DNA from: Armatimonadota bacterium
GTDB taxonomy: Bacteria; Armatimonadota; HRBIN16
Length of the DNA: 64,000 nt
Reading direction: 5' to 3'
Assembly (NCBI GenBank): GCA_026003175.1
Contig: BPGT01000002.1
Span: 806,001 to 870,000 of the forward strand
The notes below the pieces were generated by a model. It was not told the origin of the DNA. It saw only the letters and a program-made list of their open reading frames with translations, and searched no databases. This document shows, in pieces, positions 10,401-59,560 of this stretch. Numbering within the stretch: the stretch's first letter is position 1; every line of letters starts with the position of its first letter. A program made the translations under genes and the position numbers.

Positions 10401-10416
10401 TGGTACGAATCTTGCA
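10401..10416 (+). promoter_or_regulatory. Sigma54 (-24/-12) promoter of the exopolysaccharide/exosortase operon
   Basis: TGGTACGAATCTTGCA fits the sigma54 consensus TGGCACG-N4-TTGCW, with GG and GC separated by exactly 10 bases. Predicted transcription starts near 10427, about 53 bases before the ATG at 10480. The same box with nearly identical sequence precedes both PEP-CTERM-like genes (58231-58246 and 59425-59440). Confidence 0.8.
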
Positions 10417-10479
10417 CTATATAGTGAACGGGGAGAGATGCTTCAAGTGGGTTCCCCGAAGAAGGAGGTAATCAAACGC

Positions 10480-11400
10480 ATGAGAGCTGTATGGATAGCG
10501 TTGCTCCTGGTGACCGTCGGCGCACTGGCGACGGCGGACGACACGTACCGCATACAGAGAGACGACGTTCTGCAAGTGACCGTGGTGGAGGACCCAAACC
10601 TGACCCGCGAGATGGTAGTGGCACAGGATGGAACCATTAACCTGCCGGTTGTGGGCACCATCACGGTGCGCGGGCTAACTACCGGCGAGGTGGCGGAGAA
10701 GATTCGGCTTGCGTTGATTGAGGCACAGTTCCTGCGCGACCCGCACGTGAGCGTTAGCATCCGCGCGGTTAACCGCCCGCGCGTGGCAGTGTTGGGGATG
10801 GTGATGCGCCCTGGCTCCTACGAGTTCAAGGAGGGCGAAACCATTATGCACGCCATCTCGATGGCAGGCAGCTTCGACCCCGACCGCGCACTGCTCAAGG
10901 ATGCTCTGCTCCGTCGCAAGCGACCGGATGGTACCGAAGAGACCATCCCGCTGGACCTGGAAAAGCTTTTCTTCAAGGGCGACCTGAGCCAGAACTATCG
11001 TCTACAACCCGACGATGTGATATTCATCCCCGAGGACGTGGTGAACCGGATATACGTTCTGGGCAAGGTGATGCGTCCGGGGCTCTACCCATGGAAAAGC
11101 AGCACCACCGTGCTGGAAGCTATTAACCGAGCGGGTGGTCAGCAAGATAAAGGCACCCTCAGCAGAGTGTACGTCATCCGCCCCAACCCCAACGCGCCGG
11201 ACAAGCCCCAGCGCATCGTGGTGAACCTGCTGAAGCTGATCGATAAGGGGGACACCTCGCAAGATATTCCGCTCCAGCCTGGCGACACGGTTTACGTACC
11301 GGAGGTCAAAAAGCCCGACTGGAACCAGATATATAGCATCGTAGCAACCGTTGCGCTAACGCGAAACGTCATCCTGAACAGAGCATTCTATCGTTACTAA
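10480..11400 (+). CDS. Polysaccharide export protein with SLBB domains (Wza-like)
   Basis: The start ATG 10480 follows AAGGAGG (10462-10468) and opens with a signal peptide (MRAVWIALLLVTVGALATA). Next comes the Poly_export domain (YRIQRDDVLQVTVVEDPNLTREM, GTINLPVVGTITVRGLTTGEVAEKI), then two SLBB repeats (VAVLGMVMRPGSYEFKEG and IYVLGKVMRPGLYPWKSS). About 306 residues. It forms the outer-membrane or periplasmic export conduit for an exopolysaccharide. It is the first gene of the operon behind the sigma54 box; the chain-length/kinase gene follows after 11 bases with its own AAGGAGG. Confidence 0.93.
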   Translation: MRAVWIALLLVTVGALATADDTYRIQRDDVLQVTVVEDPNLTREMVVAQDGTINLPVVGTITVRGLTTGEVAEKIRLALIEAQFLRDPHVSVSIRAVNRPRVAVLGMVMRPGSYEFKEGETIMHAISMAGSFDPDRALLKDALLRRKRPDGTEETIPLDLEKLFFKGDLSQNYRLQPDDVIFIPEDVVNRIYVLGKVMRPGLYPWKSSTTVLEAINRAGGQQDKGTLSRVYVIRPNPNAPDKPQRIVVNLLKLIDKGDTSQDIPLQPGDTVYVPEVKKPDWNQIYSIVATVALTRNVILNRAFYRY

Positions 11401-11411
11401 AAGGAGGCGAT

Positions 11412-13538
11412 TTGTACGTGGAGTTCTGGCGTCACTATATGATTTTGAAACGGCGATGGCGCATCATCGCGCTGGTGGTGATACTGTGCGCAGGCGCAGT
11501 ACTGGTGTGGTCGCGCACGTCACCTCAGGAGTACGAAGCCGTCGCTGTGCTGCGAGAGCAACGCCCTGTGGGTGAGATGGCGACCGAGATATACCCTGTG
11601 CGTGCCCTGATTAACGACCCGGTGCTGCGCCTGCAGAACCTCGCGCAAATTGTGTCCAGCAACACCGTTATCAGCAAAACCGTGGACGAACTTCAGGTGC
11701 TGCGTCCGGGTGTGCTGGAGGGAGAAACTCCGGCTGATCGCGTCGTAGCCTTCAGCGGGAAGGTGCGCGTGGAGCCGATACCCAACACCGAATTCTTGCG
11801 CGTGCGCCTGCGCGACCCGGACCCCCAGAGTGCGCTGACCGCTCTCAGCGTGCTTGTAGCGAAAGCCACCGAGCGCTACAACGAGCTGACACAGGGAACC
11901 GTCCGGTCAGAGCGCGAACGCATCGAGAACGAACTCTTACCCGCAGCAAAGGCGGACCTAGATGCCAAGCGCAAAGCGCTCGCCGACTACAAGCTGGCAA
12001 ACCGCATTAGCGGGGATTTAGCTTTCCAGACGCAGGTGCTAGTGCAGCGAGCTGCGCAGTATCGCGCCAACCTGGACCAGGCGACGGTGGAGATGGAAGA
12101 AGCAAGGGCGCGGCGCATCGCGGCGGAACAGGAGCTCAAAAGCCAGTATGCTAAGAACGAGTATGAGGAGCTCCAGCGCGTGATGGCGACTAACCCTGTG
12201 CTAGAGCAGCTACGCATAGACCTGGCGCGAGCACAGGCGAGCCTGCAGAAAGAGCTGCAGACCAAAGCTGAACGCCATCCCGACGTGGTTGCGCTCAAAG
12301 CGCAAATCGCGGAGATCGAGTCGCGAATGCGTCTGGAGAGCGAGCAGATTTTGAACTCACAGACGCGCTCCCGTAACCCTATTCGGGACGCGGCGTTACA
12401 GGCGTACATCACGGCTCGAGTTGCTGAAGAGGCTGCCGCCAAACGCGCGCAGGCTTACGCAGAACCGTTGCGTCGTGCGCTTGCCGAACTGGCTGATATG
12501 CCGCGCAAAGAGGCTGGCGTTGCCCGGTTGGAACTGGCGGCGCGCACTGCCGAGCAAACATATAACCTCTACCTGCAAAAGCTCGACGAGGCGAGAGCGA
12601 AAGAACGAGGCGCTCAGACCGCGACGCTGGTGCTGCTAGACCCCCCACAGGTGTTCGTGGTACCCAAACAGACAGGGTTGAAGGTCGCTCTGGCGCTGCT
12701 GTTGTCGCTCCTCCTGGCGAGTAGCGTGGTGTTGTTGCTGGGGCAGCTGGACACCTCCGTACGCACACCCGAGGAAGCCGAACGCCTGCTTAAGCTGCCT
12801 GTGTTCGCAGTAATACCGCTGATGAAACCCAACGCACTGGACAAGCAGGACGGTTTTACCCCAATCGGCGCGTCGTATCAGATACTCTCCACCAACCTGT
12901 GGTACGCCAGTCGCCAGATGCAGGGTTCTGCTGTAGTTATCGCCAGCGCAGAGCCCAACGTCGGACGCAGTACCACCGCGGCGAACCTTGCCATCACGCT
13001 CGCCCGCGATGGGGCGCGGGTGCTGTTAGTGGATGGCGATATGCGCCAGCCTACCTTACATACCCGCTTCGGCATGGATAACTCGCTGGGGTTGGCGGAT
13101 GTGTTGTCTGGCGAGAAATCCATCGAAGATGTGGCTGTGCCCACGATGATTGAAGGGCTGGTGTTGATACCGGCGGGGTCGTCGGCGGGCAACCCGGTTC
13201 GTCTGCTGCGCTCGGCGACGATGGAGCAGTTCGTGGAGCGCACGACCCGACTGGCGGATTTCGTCATTTTCGACTCGCCAGCGGGAGCCATCTTCGCAGA
13301 CAGCACGCTGATAGCAGCGCACGTGAAGAACGTGATTATCGTGCACGCTGCCGGACAACCGTCGCGCGGTGCGGAAGCGGAGTTCCATGCCCGTCTGGAA
13401 CAGGTTGGAGCCAACCTGATAGGCGCGGTACTGAACAAGGTACGCCCGGAGGATAGCAGGGGCGTATACTACTACAGGAGAGCATATCGCGAGCTGGCAC
13501 TGCGCCAGCCATCGGCGCGTGCACTACCCCGAGGATAG
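11412..13538 (+). CDS. Exopolysaccharide chain-length determinant fused to a BY-kinase-like ATPase
   Basis: N-terminal Wzz domain (FWRHYMILKRRWRIIALVVIL transmembrane segment), a long coiled-coil periplasmic region (about residues 150-410), a second transmembrane helix (VALALLLSLLLASSVVLLLG), then a cytoplasmic CpsD/CapB-type ATPase with Walker A' LLVDGDMRQPTLH and Walker B ADFVIFDSPA. A Tyr cluster YYYRRAY near the C-terminus is the usual autophosphorylation site of bacterial tyrosine kinases. The Walker A is unusual: AEPNVGRSTT, with Arg519 (codon CGC at 12966) where the family has Lys. The start is TTG 11412 or GTG 11418 after AAGGAGG at 11401; the latter has better spacing. It controls polymer length and export with the preceding protein. 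Confidence 0.9.
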   Translation: MYVEFWRHYMILKRRWRIIALVVILCAGAVLVWSRTSPQEYEAVAVLREQRPVGEMATEIYPVRALINDPVLRLQNLAQIVSSNTVISKTVDELQVLRPGVLEGETPADRVVAFSGKVRVEPIPNTEFLRVRLRDPDPQSALTALSVLVAKATERYNELTQGTVRSERERIENELLPAAKADLDAKRKALADYKLANRISGDLAFQTQVLVQRAAQYRANLDQATVEMEEARARRIAAEQELKSQYAKNEYEELQRVMATNPVLEQLRIDLARAQASLQKELQTKAERHPDVVALKAQIAEIESRMRLESEQILNSQTRSRNPIRDAALQAYITARVAEEAAAKRAQAYAEPLRRALAELADMPRKEAGVARLELAARTAEQTYNLYLQKLDEARAKERGAQTATLVLLDPPQVFVVPKQTGLKVALALLLSLLLASSVVLLLGQLDTSVRTPEEAERLLKLPVFAVIPLMKPNALDKQDGFTPIGASYQILSTNLWYASRQMQGSAVVIASAEPNVGRSTTAANLAITLARDGARVLLVDGDMRQPTLHTRFGMDNSLGLADVLSGEKSIEDVAVPTMIEGLVLIPAGSSAGNPVRLLRSATMEQFVERTTRLADFVIFDSPAGAIFADSTLIAAHVKNVIIVHAAGQPSRGAEAEFHARLEQVGANLIGAVLNKVRPEDSRGVYYYRRAYRELALRQPSARALPRG

Positions 13539-13643: not shown

Positions 13644-14351
13644 ATGGCACATGCACAAGCACCGTTACCGGGTGTTGCGCCCCCCACGGTTGGGGAGGCG
13701 GACATGCCCGACCTGCGGGTAGAAGTGCCTGTACTTGAACTGCCCAGAAGCTACCGCCTTGCCAAGCGGGCACTGGATGTTGTGGTGGCAAGCATCGGGC
13801 TGATTCTGCTGGCGCCGCTGATGTTGCTTATCGCGATCGCGATTAAGCTGGACTCGCCGGGACCGGTGCTCTTTCGGCAGGTGCGGATTGGCAAGGGCGG
13901 TAAGCCGTTCTGGTTCATTAAGTTTCGCTCGATGGTGAAAAACGCCGAACAGATTAAACGGGAGCTGATACCGAAGAACGAAGTGCGTGGTGGTCCGGTT
14001 TTCAAGATGCGCAACGACCCGCGCGTGACGCGCGTGGGCAGGTTCCTGCGTCGATATAGCCTGGACGAGCTGCCCCAGCTTATCCATGTGCTGCATGGTG
14101 AGATGAGCCTGGTGGGTCCCCGACCGCCGCTGCCCTCAGAAGTGGCGAGCTATGGCGAGTGGGAGATGCGCCGGCTTAGCGTGACTCCCGGCTTGACCTG
14201 TCTGTGGCAAATCAGCGGGCGCAGTGACATCGGGTTCCGCGAATGGGTGGAGCTCGACCACATCTATATCGACACCATGAGCTTCTGGACCGACCTGAAG
14301 ATACTGTTGTTCACCGTTCCCGCGGTGATTACCGGTAAAGGAGCCTGCTGA
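13644..14351 (+). CDS. Undecaprenyl-phosphate sugar-1-phosphate transferase (bacterial sugar transferase family)
   Basis: A 235-residue monotopic phosphoglycosyl transferase. A hydrophobic hairpin (ALDVVVASIGLILLAPLMLLIAI) leads into DSPGPVLFRQVRIG, FWFIKFRSM, DELPQLIHVLHGEMSLVGPRPPLPSE and a CLWQISGRSDI end, all family signatures (PF02397 type). It starts repeat-unit assembly by loading a sugar phosphate on the lipid carrier. The first 40 residues are an unrelated Pro-rich segment. A 105-base gap with no obvious promoter separates it from the kinase gene, so it is probably in the same operon. The sugar cannot be told. Confidence 0.93.
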   Translation: MAHAQAPLPGVAPPTVGEADMPDLRVEVPVLELPRSYRLAKRALDVVVASIGLILLAPLMLLIAIAIKLDSPGPVLFRQVRIGKGGKPFWFIKFRSMVKNAEQIKRELIPKNEVRGGPVFKMRNDPRVTRVGRFLRRYSLDELPQLIHVLHGEMSLVGPRPPLPSEVASYGEWEMRRLSVTPGLTCLWQISGRSDIGFREWVELDHIYIDTMSFWTDLKILLFTVPAVITGKGAC

Positions 14352-14378: not shown

Positions 14379-15296
14379 ATGAAGTGGTTGCAGCAGAACG
14401 AGGTCTCTTTGCAGCAGACAAACTTTTTAGGGTGGATAAAATGGGGCGTGGTGGCGATGCGACCGCGCCAGTGGAGCAAAAACCTGCTACTGTTTGCAGG
14501 CTTGCTTTTCGCCGAGAAGCTGGGAGACGTTACCAGAGTATGGCTGAATATCCTGGCGTTTTTCAGCTTTTGCCTGATTTCGGGCGCTGTGTATATCTAC
14601 AACGACCTGCAAGACGTTGAGGAAGACCGTCTGCACCCCCAAAAGCGATTGCGCCCTATCGCCTCCGGCAAGTTGCCGATAGGGGTTGCCATCTGGCTGA
14701 TGGTATGCGCGATGCTGGTGGGCTTGGTGCTATCATTCTGGATACGCCCTGCTTTCGGCTGGCTGGCGGTGCTGTATATATTGCTCTCGCTGACGTATTC
14801 GTTGGGCGCAAAGCACATTGTCATTCTGGACGTGTTCCTGATTGCAGCGGGGTTCGTGCTGCGCGCGCTAGCAGGGGCGGTGGCTATCGACGTTAGCATC
14901 TCGGGCTGGTTACTGGCGTGCACCACATTGCTGTCGCTTTTTCTGGGCTTCTGCAAGCGCAGGCACGAACTCGTTACACTGGGCGAGGATGCGCCCAATC
15001 ACCGGGTTACGCTGGGGGAATACAGCGTTGGGTTGCTGGATCAGTTCATCGCGATAGTGAGCTCCGCGACCATCATTACATATGCGCTCTACACCATCCA
15101 GAGCGCAACTGCGGCGCAACATGAGAATTTGAAGTATACTATTCCACTGGTGATGTACGGTCTCTTCAGGTATCTGTATCTGGTGCATCGCAAAGAGTTG
15201 GGCGGCGCTCCCGAGCAGGTACTACTGGAGGACCGGGGCATCCAAACCACAATATTATTGTGGATAGCTGTGGCGGTATGGGCAATCCTGCACTAG
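14379..15296 (+). CDS. UbiA-family decaprenyl-phosphate phosphoribosyltransferase-like (DPPR synthase-like) membrane enzyme
   Basis: A 305-residue polytopic protein. MRPRQWSKNLLLFAGLLFAEKL and the metal-binding NDLQDVEEDRLHPQKRLRPIASG region (NDxxDxxxD then HPxKxxRPIASG) are characteristic of the DPPR-synthase branch of UbiA enzymes, which transfer phosphoribose from PRPP to a polyprenyl phosphate. A second Asp-rich loop is not obvious. It is followed 9 bases later by a GtrA gene. In mycobacteria the corresponding enzyme (Rv3806c) and a GtrA protein (Rv3789) take part in arabinan precursor synthesis. Presence in an exosortase operon suggests pentose decoration of the polymer or protein; that is inference. 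Confidence 0.87.
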   Translation: MKWLQQNEVSLQQTNFLGWIKWGVVAMRPRQWSKNLLLFAGLLFAEKLGDVTRVWLNILAFFSFCLISGAVYIYNDLQDVEEDRLHPQKRLRPIASGKLPIGVAIWLMVCAMLVGLVLSFWIRPAFGWLAVLYILLSLTYSLGAKHIVILDVFLIAAGFVLRALAGAVAIDVSISGWLLACTTLLSLFLGFCKRRHELVTLGEDAPNHRVTLGEYSVGLLDQFIAIVSSATIITYALYTIQSATAAQHENLKYTIPLVMYGLFRYLYLVHRKELGGAPEQVLLEDRGIQTTILLWIAVAVWAILH

Positions 15297-15305
15297 GAGC
15301 AATGA

Positions 15306-15779
15306 ATGAACGGTATTTCTGTTAGCAATTGGATAACGGCGCAGCTGCAGCGTAAAGGTGTACGGCAGTTCATCAAGTTCTGTATCGTTGGTGCAAGCAG
15401 CACGCTGATTGACTTCACGGTGGCAAACATTGCCTACTACCTGCTGAACGTCCGCCCTGCAGCGCTGGCGAGCGTGATGGGTTTCTGTGTGGCGGTGGTC
15501 AACGGCTATTTCTGGAACAGCCGCTGGACATTCCGCGACCGTGAACGACGCGCTGTGCACGAAGAGTTCATTCGCTTTGTCATGGTGAACATCGTCGGGG
15601 CGCTGTTGAACTATAGCATCGTAAGCTTCGTATTACTATTTGATAAGCATGATCCGCATCCCAAACTGGTATTTAACGGCGCCAAGATACTGGCAACGGG
15701 TATCGTGGTGTTCTGGAACTTCTTTGCCAATAGACGCTGGACGTTCGGTCATCGGAAAGGAGCGGTACGGACACAATGA
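15306..15779 (+). CDS. GtrA-family membrane protein
   Basis: A 157-residue four-helix membrane protein: FIKFCIVGASSTLIDFTVANIAYYLL, a second helix pair with NGYFWNSRWTFRDR, and the closing FFANRRWTFGH motif, as in GtrA. Family members are thought to help move or organise polyprenyl-linked sugars. The ATG of the exosortase gene overlaps its stop (15776-15779), showing translational coupling. Confidence 0.92.
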   Translation: MNGISVSNWITAQLQRKGVRQFIKFCIVGASSTLIDFTVANIAYYLLNVRPAALASVMGFCVAVVNGYFWNSRWTFRDRERRAVHEEFIRFVMVNIVGALLNYSIVSFVLLFDKHDPHPKLVFNGAKILATGIVVFWNFFANRRWTFGHRKGAVRTQ

Positions 15780-16642
15780 ACGAAGCGATTCGTAAACCTC
15801 GCTGGGCTGTGAAGCAGTGGTTGCCTCTGCGTGCCTTTTGGCTGGGCATCGGGTTGGCAATAGCGGTCTTTGTAGCTTACTACTCGATGTTCGTCGACTG
15901 GAAGGGCAAATGGTTCGAATGGACAGGTTACTACTCGCACGGTGTGCTCGTGCCTTTTCTGGCAGCGTATATGGTATGGATGCGCCGCGAAGAACTGCGC
16001 AGAGAAGTGCCTGCTCCTAGCGGTCACGGCTTCTGGCTGATCGTGCCCGCACTGCTCCTGCGTATACTGGGACATGTCGCACCGTCCACTACGCTATCCT
16101 CCATTTCTTTCATGATGCTGCTGTATGGTATGACGGCTGCCCTGCTCGGCTGGAACTATGTACGCATTCTCTGGTTTCCGCTGCTTTTTCTTATCTTTAT
16201 GGTGCCTCTGCCCGGCGTCATCTTCGATGAGATCTCTCAACCTGCACAGGCGTGGTCTACCGGTGTTGCTGACGCAATCCTTAAAACTATCGGTTACGAA
16301 ACCCGTCGAGTGGGCAATTTTATCTATATCCCGGGTGGGTTCGATCTGGATGTGGGAGTGCCTTGTAGCGGATTCAAAATGCTTATTTCAATGGCAACTT
16401 TTGCTGCCTTCTTCGCCTACTACATCGGCACCAGTGTCTGGCGGCAAGTGCTTCTGGTAATAACTGCATTGCCTCTGGCGATTCTCATCAACGGTTTACG
16501 AATTGCCCTTATCGGCGTCGTCGGCACTAAGTTCGGCGAGGAAGCCGGCTACAACTTTCACGATTGGAGCGGCTACCTCGTGCTGGTAATCGCCTTCGCC
16601 GCATTGTTTCAGGTAGGGAGGTTGCTAGGATGGCGTCGTTAA
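15776..16642 (+). CDS. Exosortase
   Basis: A 288-residue multi-pass membrane protein with the exosortase triad: Cys197 in VPCSGFKML, Arg242 in NGLRIALIG and His262 in NFHDWSGY. The N-terminal WFEWTGYYSHGVLVPFLAAYMVW is the usual YSHG-type loop. Exosortases process proteins with a C-terminal PEP-CTERM tag (motif, hydrophobic helix, basic tail) in exopolysaccharide-producing Gram-negative bacteria. It is coupled to gtrA upstream and overlaps the EpsI start downstream. Candidate substrates are the IPDAST-tagged proteins at 57.4-59.4 kb, which share its promoter type. Confidence 0.93.
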   Translation: MNEAIRKPRWAVKQWLPLRAFWLGIGLAIAVFVAYYSMFVDWKGKWFEWTGYYSHGVLVPFLAAYMVWMRREELRREVPAPSGHGFWLIVPALLLRILGHVAPSTTLSSISFMMLLYGMTAALLGWNYVRILWFPLLFLIFMVPLPGVIFDEISQPAQAWSTGVADAILKTIGYETRRVGNFIYIPGGFDLDVGVPCSGFKMLISMATFAAFFAYYIGTSVWRQVLLVITALPLAILINGLRIALIGVVGTKFGEEAGYNFHDWSGYLVLVIAFAALFQVGRLLGWRR

Positions 16643-17307
16643 CTTCTGTTTCTAACGGCTGCCCGAAATACTCGCTACGCAACTTGTGGATACTCTTTGC
16701 GCTCAGCGTAGCAACAGCAATTGTCGTACTGGTTACCCGCCCGGGGCAGGGCAAGGTCACTGTGGAAATCACCGACGAGCGTATCCCTATGCAGGTGGGG
16801 GAATGGCAGGGACGACGCTATGAAATGGGAACGCTGGTTTATCAGGCTCTTCGCCCAGACGCTATCATCTCGCGAATATACATCAACCCGGAAGGACGGC
16901 AAATCGACTTTGTCTTGCTTGCCGGCACGCACTCAGACGCTTTTCATAATCCGCATCTGTGTTTTCCCGACCAGGGATGGAAAATCCAGAACGACCGTCA
17001 GATAGAGTTTCGGATACCCGGCTTAGATAAATCGTTCAATGCACGCCTGATGCAGGTAGACAATAATGGGCGTAAAGCGACGGTCGTGTACTGGTACCGC
17101 TCGCCTCTGGGGTCGACTGGTTCAGCCGCCGTTGCGCGAATCTCCACCTACATAGCACGCCTGCTAGGGATGCAACGCCAGCAGACTTTCTTCATGCGTT
17201 TCATTGTACCCTCCTCCGGCAGCGAGGATAAGGACCTGGACGTGGTTCGCGAGTTCGCCGGACAGCTGTTCTCCGCGTTGAAGCAGAGTTTGCCTGAGGT
17301 TATCTAA
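16630..17307 (+). CDS. epsI: EpsI-family exosortase-associated protein (DUF3485)
   Basis: The start is ATG 16630, inside the end of the exosortase gene and after GGGAGG; a frame from 16564 would overlap far more. One N-terminal transmembrane helix (LWILFALSVATAIVVLV) is followed by a periplasmic domain with MQVGEWQGRRYEM and AGTHSDAFHNPHLCFPDQGWKI, the HxPxxCxPxxGW signature of EpsI. About 225 residues. EpsI is found with, or fused to, exosortase and is thought to assist sorting or polymer assembly. The last four bases overlap the converging GT-C gene. Confidence 0.92.
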   Translation: MASLTSVSNGCPKYSLRNLWILFALSVATAIVVLVTRPGQGKVTVEITDERIPMQVGEWQGRRYEMGTLVYQALRPDAIISRIYINPEGRQIDFVLLAGTHSDAFHNPHLCFPDQGWKIQNDRQIEFRIPGLDKSFNARLMQVDNNGRKATVVYWYRSPLGSTGSAAVARISTYIARLLGMQRQQTFFMRFIVPSSGSEDKDLDVVREFAGQLFSALKQSLPEVI

Positions 17308-57373: not shown

Positions 57374-58168
57374 CTATGCCTTCTTGCGTCGGAGCAGTGC
57401 CAGTGCGGGCACCCCGCTCAGGAACAGCATCCACGTGGAGGCATCGGGAATGACCGACGCAAACACCACGAAGTCCTGATAATCTCCGTCGAATGAGGTG
57501 CTCTCCACCGTCATGTCCTCTACCCCGATGTAATACGACTGGTTCTTCACCACCTCAAAGAAAGCGAAGTGCTGAACCAACTTGTCCGCTGTCTTCGTGT
57601 TCAGACCGGACTCCGAGAACCAAGCCCACTTGGCCGTGCCGGGGTTGGCCTTATCCTCCGTCGCCAGATACCAGCCGAAATCCGTCCACGGCGGGGTGAA
57701 GGTTTTAATAGCACCTGCGGTGTCACCACCAACGAACAGACGCACGTGGTCTGCCGACGAAGCGGTGAGCAGGGTATTCTTGTTGACCGCCACGCCTTTC
57801 TTGTAGATGCCGAAGTAGTTGTAGTCATCCAGCCCTGCCACCTCGATGCGGATAGCCGCCCAGTTGGGGTCGGTGGAGGTGAAGTAGATGCTCAAATCTC
57901 CAGCCGAAGAGCTGCCAACGTATGGGTAGGCTACGCCAGGACCAGTACCGCCAGTAAAAGCACCGGTATTGGTCAACCAGTTACCGATGTTGCCAGGCTT
58001 GGTAAAGTCCTTGGAGTTGCCATCCCAGTAGGGGTCGCCATTTTCATCGGCATCTGCTGCTACCCAGCTTTGCGTGGTGCTGACACTGGGCTGCAACGTC
58101 AACGCCTGGGCAGTGCCTACTGCCAGTGCCAAACCAGCTACCAGCACGAACAGTACGAACCTTTTCAT
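57374..58168 (-). CDS. Secreted protein with a PEP-CTERM-like sorting tag (IPDAST variant), copy 1
   Basis: Start ATG 58168 after AAAGGAGGG; a longer open frame upstream is spurious because it includes the promoter. 264 residues: signal peptide MKRFVLFVLVAGLALAVGTAQA, a beta-rich mature domain with many aromatic and Asn/Thr residues (FTGGTGPGVAYPYVGSSSAG, AAIRIEVAGLDDYNYFGIYKKG), then the C-terminal IPDAST motif, a hydrophobic helix and RRKKA. That tripartite tail is the layout of exosortase substrates, with Asp-Ala in place of Glu-Pro. A sigma54 box lies 63-78 bases before the ATG, matching that of the exosortase operon. Copy 2 follows upstream in tandem. Probably anchored or secreted with the exopolysaccharide; ligand unknown. 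Confidence 0.82.
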   Translation of the reverse strand: MKRFVLFVLVAGLALAVGTAQALTLQPSVSTTQSWVAADADENGDPYWDGNSKDFTKPGNIGNWLTNTGAFTGGTGPGVAYPYVGSSSAGDLSIYFTSTDPNWAAIRIEVAGLDDYNYFGIYKKGVAVNKNTLLTASSADHVRLFVGGDTAGAIKTFTPPWTDFGWYLATEDKANPGTAKWAWFSESGLNTKTADKLVQHFAFFEVVKNQSYYIGVEDMTVESTSFDGDYQDFVVFASVIPDASTWMLFLSGVPALALLRRKKA

Positions 58169-58230
58169 TCCTTTCCCTCCTTTTCGCAGTTTTCTGGGGG
58201 CTGCGAGTCCCCCTTCCACCCTATATATAA

Positions 58231-58246
58231 TGCAAGAAGCGTGCCA
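58231..58246 (-). promoter_or_regulatory. Sigma54 promoter of PEP-CTERM-like copy 1
   Basis: On the minus strand TGGCACGCTTCTTGCA, an exact match to TGGCACG-N4-TTGCW, followed by TATATATAGGGTGG. Predicted start near 58221 gives a leader of about 53 bases, the same as at 10401. The remainder of 58169-58559 holds the two hairpins of copy 2 and no gene. Confidence 0.85.
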
Positions 58247-58421
58247 CAGGCGGGACACCGTAACCTTAGCAAGTGAATTTTTATGAAAAATTGTCGGAGT
58301 TGACTTGATATATTGCCTGTAATGGATGGTGTAATACATTGCAAGCAGATCAAGGTGACAGATGGAGGCATACTCATCATCAGGGGCGAAGCAATCTCCC
58401 GTTTTACCGGACTGCGTAACC

Positions 58422-58472
58422 CCTAAAACAAAATGCGCCGATAGGCAGTTTCTCACTGCAGCACGGCGCATT
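58422..58472 (-). terminator. Intrinsic terminator of PEP-CTERM-like copy 2
   Basis: On the minus strand AATGCGCCG pairs with CGGCGCATT (58432-58472), with an inner CTGCAGT/ACTG pairing, followed by TTTTGTTTTAGG. The internal bases TGCTGCAG and CTGCCTAT are shared with the hairpin after copy 1. Confidence 0.75.
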
Positions 58473-58519
58473 CTTACAGGTTGGAGTTCTGTTTAGCCGG
58501 TCTGTTCTCGGAGGGGAAG

Positions 58520-58547
58520 AGACCTGCGATGGGCACGCCGCAGGTCT
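58520..58547 (-). terminator. Hairpin directly after PEP-CTERM-like copy 2
   Basis: AGACCTGCG (58520-58528) pairs with CGCAGGTCT (58539-58547), 12 bases past the stop. It is the positional equivalent of the hairpin after copy 1 but with different stem sequence. Confidence 0.5.
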
Positions 58548-58559
58548 TCCCGTGGTCAC

Positions 58560-59360
58560 CTATCCTTTCCGACGGCGCAACAGCGCCAGTGCGGGCACCC
58601 CGCTCAGGAACAGCATCCACGTCGAGGCGTCGGGAATGACCGACGCAAACACCACGAAGTCCTGATAGTCTCCGTCGAATGAGGTGCTCTCCACCGTCAT
58701 GTCCTCTACCCCGATGTAATACGACTGGTTCTTCGCCACCTCAAAGAAGGCGAAGTGCTGAACCGTCTTGTCCGCTGTCTTCGTGTTCAGACCGGACTCC
58801 GAGAACCAAGCCCACTTGGCCGTGCCGGGGTTGGCCTCGTCCTCCGTCGCCAGATACCAGCCGAAGTCCGTGCCACGGCGGAGTGAAGGTCTTGAGTAGC
58901 ACCTGCGGTGTCACCACCGACGAACAGGCGCACGTGGTCTGCCGACGAAGCGAGTGAGCAGGGTATCCTTGTTGACCGCCACGCCTTTCTTGTAGATGCC
59001 GAAGTAGTTGTAGTCATCCAGCCCTGCCACCTCGATGCGGATGGCCGCCCAGTTCGGGTCGGTGGAGGTGAAGTAGATGCTCAAATCTCCAGCCGAAGAG
59101 CTGCCAACGTATGGGTAGGCTACGCCAGGACCAGTACCGCCAGTAAAAGCACCGGTATTGGTCAACCAGTTACCGATGTTGCCAGGCTTGGTAAAGTCCT
59201 TGGAGTTGCCATCCCAGTAGGGGTCGCCATTGTTGCATCGGCAATCTGCTGCTACCCAGCTTTGCGTGGTGCTGACACTGGGCTGCAACGTCAACGCCTG
59301 GGCAGTGCCTACTGCCAGGATTAAACCGACAGTCAACGCGAACAGAATTGATTTCTTCAC
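58560..59360 (-). pseudogene. PEP-CTERM-like protein copy 2, broken by several single-base insertions
   Basis: Nearly the same protein as copy 1: GTG 59360 after GGAGGGACAG, signal peptide, shared mature domain, and the tail IPDAST...LLRRRKG ending at 58560. Relative to copy 1 there are three extra bases at 59231-59255 (frame kept) and single extra bases near 58953, 58894 and 58872. The last three throw about 27 codons out of frame with a stop, after which the original frame returns. Promoter, signal peptide, tag and terminator are all intact. Either a recent pseudogene or a poorly called stretch. Confidence 0.75.
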
Positions 59361-59424
59361 TTTTTCTGTCCCTCCTTCCAGAGATTGCCCCACTACGTAA
59401 GTAGGGCTTCCACCCTATATATAA

Positions 59425-59440
59425 TGCAAGAACCGTACCA
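59425..59440 (-). promoter_or_regulatory. Sigma54 promoter of PEP-CTERM-like copy 2
   Basis: On the minus strand TGGTACGGTTCTTGCA, with GG and GC 10 bases apart, followed by the same TATATATAGGGTGG as copy 1. The TGGTACG half is identical to the site at 10401. Confidence 0.82.
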
Positions 59441-59560
59441 CAAACGGGGTTTCCGGCATCTTTTTCGCAAAAATTTTCGAAATTTTTCGCCTGAGGTGCT
59501 TCGCCCGACACTCCGATAATGAAAGCAGGTGTGCTATAATCGTCTAAGGGTCGAGAGAAC

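What the first reader, a model, noticed from the sequence alone, without database searches (positions are those of the whole stretch)
58231..59440. Two PEP-CTERM-like genes carry near-perfect sigma54 promoters
Seen: TGGCACGCTTCTTGCA (58231-58246) and TGGTACGGTTCTTGCA (59425-59440), both on the minus strand, GG and GC 10 bases apart, each followed by TATATATAGGGTGG. Known: some PEP-CTERM genes in other phyla are controlled by a PrsK/PrsR two-component system with RpoN. Inference: the same control logic operates here, on a variant tag and probably in Armatimonadota.
Basis: partly seen in the sequence, partly recalled or inferred. Interest (0 to 1): 0.78.

Follow-up and report, generated by a model that had tools for sequence, protein, structure and literature searches.

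The report
Sigma54 regulon for cell-surface protein sorting
Two surface-protein genes in a bacterium of the phylum Armatimonadota belong to a set of about 26 promoters, conserved across its genus, through which one alternative sigma factor (sigma54) and one unusual activator without a DNA-binding domain appear to switch on surface proteins, the enzymes that sort them, slime export and some small RNAs.

Summary
In detail: both sites are exact -24/-12 promoters, and a third (10401, not reported) heads a wza-to-exosortase operon in the same window. They belong to a genome-wide regulon: 40 pattern matches against 7 in the reversed control, about 26 sites real by layout. The sites recur through the genus (6-20 per genome at least 89% complete, control 0) and more thinly in other Armatimonadota families. 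Targets: eleven PEP-CTERM-like substrate genes, both exosortase/EPS operons, a REC-PilZ regulator, secreted proteins, RHS proteins and up to three non-coding transcripts. rpoN is present.

The PrsK/PrsR inference is only partly right. The sole strong sigma54 activator is a REC-AAA+ protein beside a GAF-GAF-PAS kinase. Both fall below the PrsR and PrsK cut-offs, and the activator lacks the C-terminal DNA-binding domain in all eight genus members whose gene end could be read, like Helicobacter FlgR and Chlamydia CtcC. Most likely it acts from solution, so promoter sequence alone sets membership. Haft et al. (2006) found the sigma54/PEP-CTERM link only in Proteobacteria; here a different activator type serves the same output: a new variant of a known kind. 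All of it is sequence inference; no transcription data exist.

The parts
58231..58246 (-). sigma54 promoter P1 (TGGCACGCTTCTTGCA); predicted transcription start about 58219-58221
   Evidence: start position inferred from 11-13 nt below GC
58277..58294 (-). A/T-rich element upstream of P1, at the position shared by the regulon (31-48 bases before TGG)
57374..58168 (-). gene 1: secreted protein, signal peptide, DUF4114-like region, IPDAST...RRKKA tail
59425..59440 (-). sigma54 promoter P2 (TGGTACGGTTCTTGCA); predicted transcription start about 59413-59415
59441..59452 (-). AAACCCCGTTTG block next to P2, shared with other regulon sites
59471..59488 (-). A/T-rich element upstream of P2
58560..59361 (-). 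gene 2: paralogue of gene 1, frameshifted here; an equivalent pair is open in relative G004
10438..11400 (+). Wza-like polysaccharide export protein (true start probably 10480)
11412..13538 (+). Wzc-like chain-length protein/tyrosine kinase
13644..14351 (+). undecaprenyl-phosphate sugar transferase
14379..15296 (+). decaprenyl-phosphate phosphoribosyltransferase-like protein
15306..15779 (+). GtrA-family membrane protein
15776..16642 (+). exosortase 2 (PF09721, TIGR02602); Cys/Arg/His conserved
16564..17307 (+). EpsI (TIGR02914, DUF3485)

Best explanation
The two sites are true sigma54 promoters and belong to one regulon of about 26 promoters. Its targets are PEP-CTERM-like substrate genes, both exosortase/exopolysaccharide operons, a REC-PilZ regulator (probably c-di-GMP-binding), large secreted proteins and up to three non-coding transcripts. 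Proposed mechanism: a GAF-GAF-PAS histidine kinase phosphorylates the adjacent REC-AAA+ activator. That activator has no DNA-binding domain and is the only strong one in the genome, so it remodels RNA polymerase-sigma54 from solution at promoters of this type; selectivity then comes from sigma54 and the promoter layout. Shown by sequence: the sites, their enrichment and conservation, the gene content, the single activator without HTH. Inferred: phosphorylation, activation from solution, co-expression, sorting of the tagged proteins by the exosortases.
For: rpoN complete. One strong PF00158 protein, 254.8 bits, the others 31 bits or less. Pattern enrichment 40 vs 7 and 21 vs 1. Sites in all ten genus genomes with control 0, and in four genomes of three other families. 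A site 34-45 nt after the activator's stop in eight of eight readable genus members. A site 200-214 nt before the exosortase-1 domain in nine of nine genus genomes that carry it. Targets are mainly surface, sorting and EPS genes. Aquincola pepA, a PEP-CTERM gene, was shown to need RpoN (PMC9850573). Activators without a DNA-binding domain are known: FlgR, CtcC.
Against: No transcript data. The wza-operon site is found in only four of eight genus genomes examined. The conserved A/T-rich element upstream is not explained by an activator that does not bind DNA. The activator reads NAFTGA instead of GAFTGA. Many tail genes have no site. Some targets (RHS, cold-shock) do not fit the surface theme neatly. 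The short activator form also occurs in phylum members without matches to the pattern.
Confidence: 0.75

Rival explanations
1. Classical PrsK/PrsR control: a DNA-bound, Fis-type PrsR at an upstream enhancer drives the genes, as in Proteobacteria.
For: The activator scores 412.5 bits against TIGR02915, kinase and regulator are adjacent, and EPS-type ABC transporter genes lie next to them.
Against: Below the TIGR02915 and TIGR02916 cut-offs; no HTH domain in any readable genus member; better scores to AtoC and NtrC models; the upstream element sits at a fixed distance, whereas Haft et al. report motif 1 at 32-92 nt.
Confidence: 0.07
2. Sigma54 regulon as above, but the activator is guided to these promoters by a separate DNA-binding partner or a bending protein that recognises the conserved A/T-rich element 31-48 bases before the -24 box.
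For: The A/T pattern is in 17 of 22 non-redundant true sites and in 1 of 16 chance matches, at a fixed position.
Against: No partner identified; the element could as well be a contact for the RNA polymerase alpha subunit or bent DNA (inference); it is weak or missing in some sites such as the wza promoter.
Confidence: 0.15
3. The two sites are chance matches or a by-product of a gene duplication.
For: Genes 1 and 2 are recent paralogues, and some RHS-type targets share near-identical upstream DNA.
Against: 0 of 100 shuffles reach 3 sites in the window; controls 0 in genus genomes; the same site at the same place before orthologous exosortase and activator genes in up to nine genomes; 22 upstream regions remain after removing look-alikes.
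Confidence: 0.02

Closest known systems
PEP-CTERM/EpsH system with PrsK/PrsR/PrsT and sigma54 in Proteobacteria (Haft et al. 2006, PMC1569441)
   Same: -24/-12 promoters before PEP-CTERM genes; exosortase with EpsI and EPS genes; adjacent histidine kinase and sigma54-interacting response regulator
   Different: Different phylum; the activator lacks the Fis/HTH domain and misses the PrsR cut-off; the kinase misses the PrsK cut-off; both exosortase/EPS operons have a site; variant tails; no variable-distance motif 1
RpoN-dependent pepA of Aquincola tertiaricarbonis (PMC9850573)
   Same: PEP-CTERM gene with a mapped -24/-12 promoter needing RpoN
   Different: Betaproteobacterium with PrsK/PrsR; experimental there, inferred here
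Activators without a DNA-binding domain: Helicobacter FlgR, Chlamydia CtcC (type Ic in PMC3162934; PMC7482065)
   Same: REC-AAA+ architecture ending after the AAA+ lid; CtcC likewise drives a whole sigma54 regulon
   Different: Known cases serve flagella or chlamydial late development; here the output is protein sorting, EPS and surface proteins; motif NAFTGA rather than GAFTGA in most genus members

Membership tests
sigma54-dependent promoter | GG and GC 10 bases apart within TGGCACG-N4-TTGCW | tested here: met
sigma54-dependent promoter | rpoN in the genome with activator, core-binding and DNA-binding domains | tested here: met
sigma54-dependent promoter | transcription start about 12 nt below GC, dependent on RpoN | not testable with these tools
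   needs RNA 5' ends and an rpoN mutant
PrsK/PrsR two-component system | response regulator above TIGR02915 cut-off (502.6 bits) | tested here: not met
   412.5 bits
PrsK/PrsR two-component system | Fis-type DNA-binding domain in the response regulator | tested here: not met
   no HTH family; short ends
PrsK/PrsR two-component system | kinase above TIGR02916 cut-off (300 bits) | tested here: not met
   best 109.9 bits as a protein, none over the cut-off genome-wide
PrsK/PrsR two-component system | transmembrane kinase | tested here: inconclusive
   only one weak hydrophobic stretch, in the region of the second GAF domain, by a simple scale
PrsK/PrsR two-component system | kinase and regulator in tandem near EPS genes | tested here: met
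   L046: ABC-2 permease, ATPase, kinase, activator in a row
PrsK/PrsR two-component system | PrsT TPR protein | not tested
PEP-CTERM/exosortase system | exosortase (PF09721, TIGR02602) with conserved Cys, Arg, His | tested here: met
   two exosortases; C197, R242, H263 in exosortase 1 numbering
PEP-CTERM/exosortase system | window proteins recognised by PEP-CTERM models | tested here: not met
   no PF07589 hit at E 0.01 and only weak C-terminal matches to two PEP-CTERM families; the layout (motif, hydrophobic stretch, basic end) is present
bEBP lacking a DNA-binding domain (FlgR/CtcC type Ic) | REC and AAA+ domains, no DNA-binding domain | tested here: met
bEBP lacking a DNA-binding domain (FlgR/CtcC type Ic) | activates from solution without an enhancer | not testable with these tools
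   needs in vitro transcription

The most novel reading that the evidence does not exclude
In this Armatimonadota lineage all sigma54 transcription is run by one activator without a DNA-binding domain and is devoted mainly to building the cell surface: one class of sorted proteins, both of their sorting enzymes, polysaccharide export, a c-di-GMP receptor and a set of undescribed sigma54-dependent small RNAs. Which proteins are sorted together would be decided at the promoter, with tail sequence and promoter co-varying as two substrate classes.
Probability: 0.35. Interest if true: 0.75.

Novelty: new variant of a known kind. Interest (0 to 1): 0.62.

Why it matters
If true, sigma54 control of exosortase-sorted surface proteins is not limited to Proteobacteria and can be run by a different activator type, so the link is either old or has arisen more than once. 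It also offers a compact case for asking how a bacterium with a single activator that cannot bind an enhancer assigns genes to a sigma54 regulon, and gives a testable list of surface, EPS and small-RNA genes in a phylum with few cultured members.

Tried and rejected
(1) PrsK/PrsR membership: rejected on cut-offs and missing HTH. (2) Chance or duplication: rejected. (3) A strict two-class rule (PDxx/PExG tails with sigma54, PEPA-type tails without) fits G000 and G004 but has exceptions in G001, G013 and G027, so it is a tendency only. (4) I first thought that only exosortase 1 was sigma54-controlled; the window operon showed that exosortase 2 also lies behind a site, though one found in only half of the genus genomes examined. 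(5) Rfam on the window and on the RNA candidate: no match. (6) L225 (G001) is not an orthologue of the structured RNA and was left out. (7) A literal GAFTGA search missed the genus activators because they read NAFTGA or SAFTGA; repeated with a looser motif. (8) Site L129 lies inside a gene read as dnaG and was not counted.

Full report
What is there. Both reported sites are exact -24/-12 promoters on the minus strand, each followed by TTATATATAGGGTGG. They end 62 and 63 bases before the likely start codons of two tandem genes for secreted proteins with IPDAST...RRK tails (coordinates). A third exact site at 10401 (+) was not reported. It heads a run of seven genes: Wza-like export protein, Wzc-like kinase, sugar transferase, decaprenyl-phosphate phosphoribosyltransferase, GtrA protein, exosortase and EpsI. 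Shuffled windows gave 0.21 such sites on average; none of 100 reached 3.

Genome-wide. The window lies in a 4.1 Mb genome of 7 contigs. rpoN is present with all three domains. TGGYACNNNNNTTGCW occurs 40 times against 7 for the reversed control. I called 24 of the 40 real because they share a further layout: an A/T-rich element 31-48 bases upstream, often an AAACCCCGTTTG or CCTGAG-like block next to the -24 box, and a TATA-like stretch downstream. Two more (GGGTACG... before the L092 gene; TGGCACTCCTCTTGCC before the L104 gene) came from the mismatch search. The A/T pattern is in 17 of 22 non-redundant true sites and in 1 of 16 chance matches. I chose the 24 by eye on this layout, so those numbers describe the set and do not test it; the pattern counts and the recurrence in relatives are the independent tests.

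Targets. Eleven genes for proteins with PEP-CTERM-like tails, counting both window genes, with one further weak case (L097). Exosortase 1 with EpsI, a Wzc-like protein and a further gene with a nucleotide-binding N-terminus. The Wza...exosortase 2 operon. A REC-PilZ regulator just behind the activator gene. Two large secreted proteins, the one read in full having subtilase, Ig-like and dockerin domains (L042; L009 was judged by its similarity to it). Five RHS-type genes. A DUF1559 protein with a pilin-like N-terminus. A cold-shock-like protein. Three sites with no convincing gene (below).

The activator. PF00158 gives one strong hit (254.8 bits); the other four are 31 bits or less, and this family also rings in every control genome, including those without the sigma54 DNA-binding family. 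The protein is REC-AAA+-lid, 408 aa. It ends 42 residues after the start of WPGNVREL, with a sigma54 promoter 36 nt further on. Eight genus members, including this one, gave readable ends; none has the HTH, and each has a sigma54 site 34-45 nt after the stop. A ninth (L059) was not parsed by my script. Outside the genus both forms occur: the four other genomes with several promoter matches (G013, G027, G029, G040) have the short form, and G011, G024, G028 and G038, with the long form, have no match; but several short-form genomes also have none. The kinase just upstream is GAF-GAF-PAS-HisKA-HATPase.

Conservation. With one mismatch allowed, genus genomes hold 2-20 sites of the extended pattern (2 only in the 77% complete G007) and no control match. 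Exosortase 1 has a site 200-214 nt before its domain start in all nine genus genomes that carry it. The wza site is found in four of eight. In other families, sites in G029, G027 and G040 precede genes with PEP-CTERM-like tails, a Wzz/GNVR gene (G029) and REC-PilZ regulators; one in G013 precedes a PEP-CTERM-like gene. The closest named exosortase-1 loci are from HRbin16 and an uncultured bacterium, both with the promoter; HRBIN16 is placed in Armatimonadota.

Tail class. The genome has about 30 tail genes at E up to 0.005. Tails with P-D, or with G after PEx, have a site above the null maximum in 12 of 13 cases in G000 (counting the window's second gene, whose promoter is known); the other tails in 0 of 17. 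In G004 it is 9 of 12 against 0 of 18 (Fisher p 1.5e-7 and 1.5e-5). I saw this split before testing it, the profile and matrix were trained on the sigma54 set, and the two genomes share orthologues, so these p-values overstate the case. Exceptions exist: PEPA tails behind sites in G001 (L257), G013 (L177) and G027 (L191).

Mechanism. Shown: promoters, their spread, one activator without HTH, gene content. Inferred from known activators of that type (FlgR, CtcC): activation from solution. Inferred from Haft et al.: that exosortases sort these proteins. The REC-PilZ protein has R...R and D.S..G motifs, which suggests but does not show c-di-GMP binding.

Against known systems. Haft et al. found sigma54 motifs before PEP-CTERM genes only in Proteobacteria, with a Fis-type PrsR and a separate motif 1. 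Aquincola pepA was shown to be RpoN-dependent. A 2025 survey of sigma54 regulons has none of Armatimonadota, PEP-CTERM or exosortase in its main text. I found no report for this phylum, but only an open-licence library was searched.

Non-coding transcripts. L037 has a site followed by about 200 nt without a gene on that strand, ending in a hairpin and a T-run. The RNA folds at -114.5 kcal/mol (z -7.0); an alignment of six genomes keeps 75 predicted pairs, 7 of them with changes on both sides. A second (L041, with copies in G001, G002 and G004) ends in a conserved hairpin and T-run after about 120-140 nt. A third (L015, with copies in G002 and G004) runs into the terminator-like hairpin beside a convergent gene and is the weakest.

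Noticed in passing
L037:4167-4395: Sigma54 site followed by a strongly structured RNA of about 200 nt (z -7.0) ending in a hairpin and T-run, after alaS, conserved in five genus relatives with paired changes; no Rfam match.
   Followed up: partly
L041:4471-4637: Second sigma54-driven small-RNA candidate, about 120-140 nt, with conserved ends and terminator in G001, G002 and G004.
   Followed up: partly
L015:1501-1645: Third, weaker candidate: sigma54 site leading into a terminator-like hairpin beside a convergent gene, with copies in G002 and G004.
   Followed up: partly
window 58560-59361: Gene 2 differs from gene 1 by several short indels that break the frame, in a stretch otherwise nearly identical: pseudogene or assembly error.
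   Followed up: partly
L046:10094-12496: The activator reads NAFTGA instead of GAFTGA (SAFTGA in one relative), and a REC-PilZ gene with its own sigma54 site follows it; REC-PilZ genes behind sigma54 sites also occur in G029, G027 and G040.
   Followed up: partly
L002, L008, L048, L030, L049: Five RHS-type genes share near-identical sigma54 upstream regions, as if promoter and gene start spread together as a cassette.
   Followed up: no
L244, L249: In G004 and G001 a sigma54 site precedes a small gene whose C-terminus looks like a sigma-70 region 4, a possible cascade.
   Followed up: no
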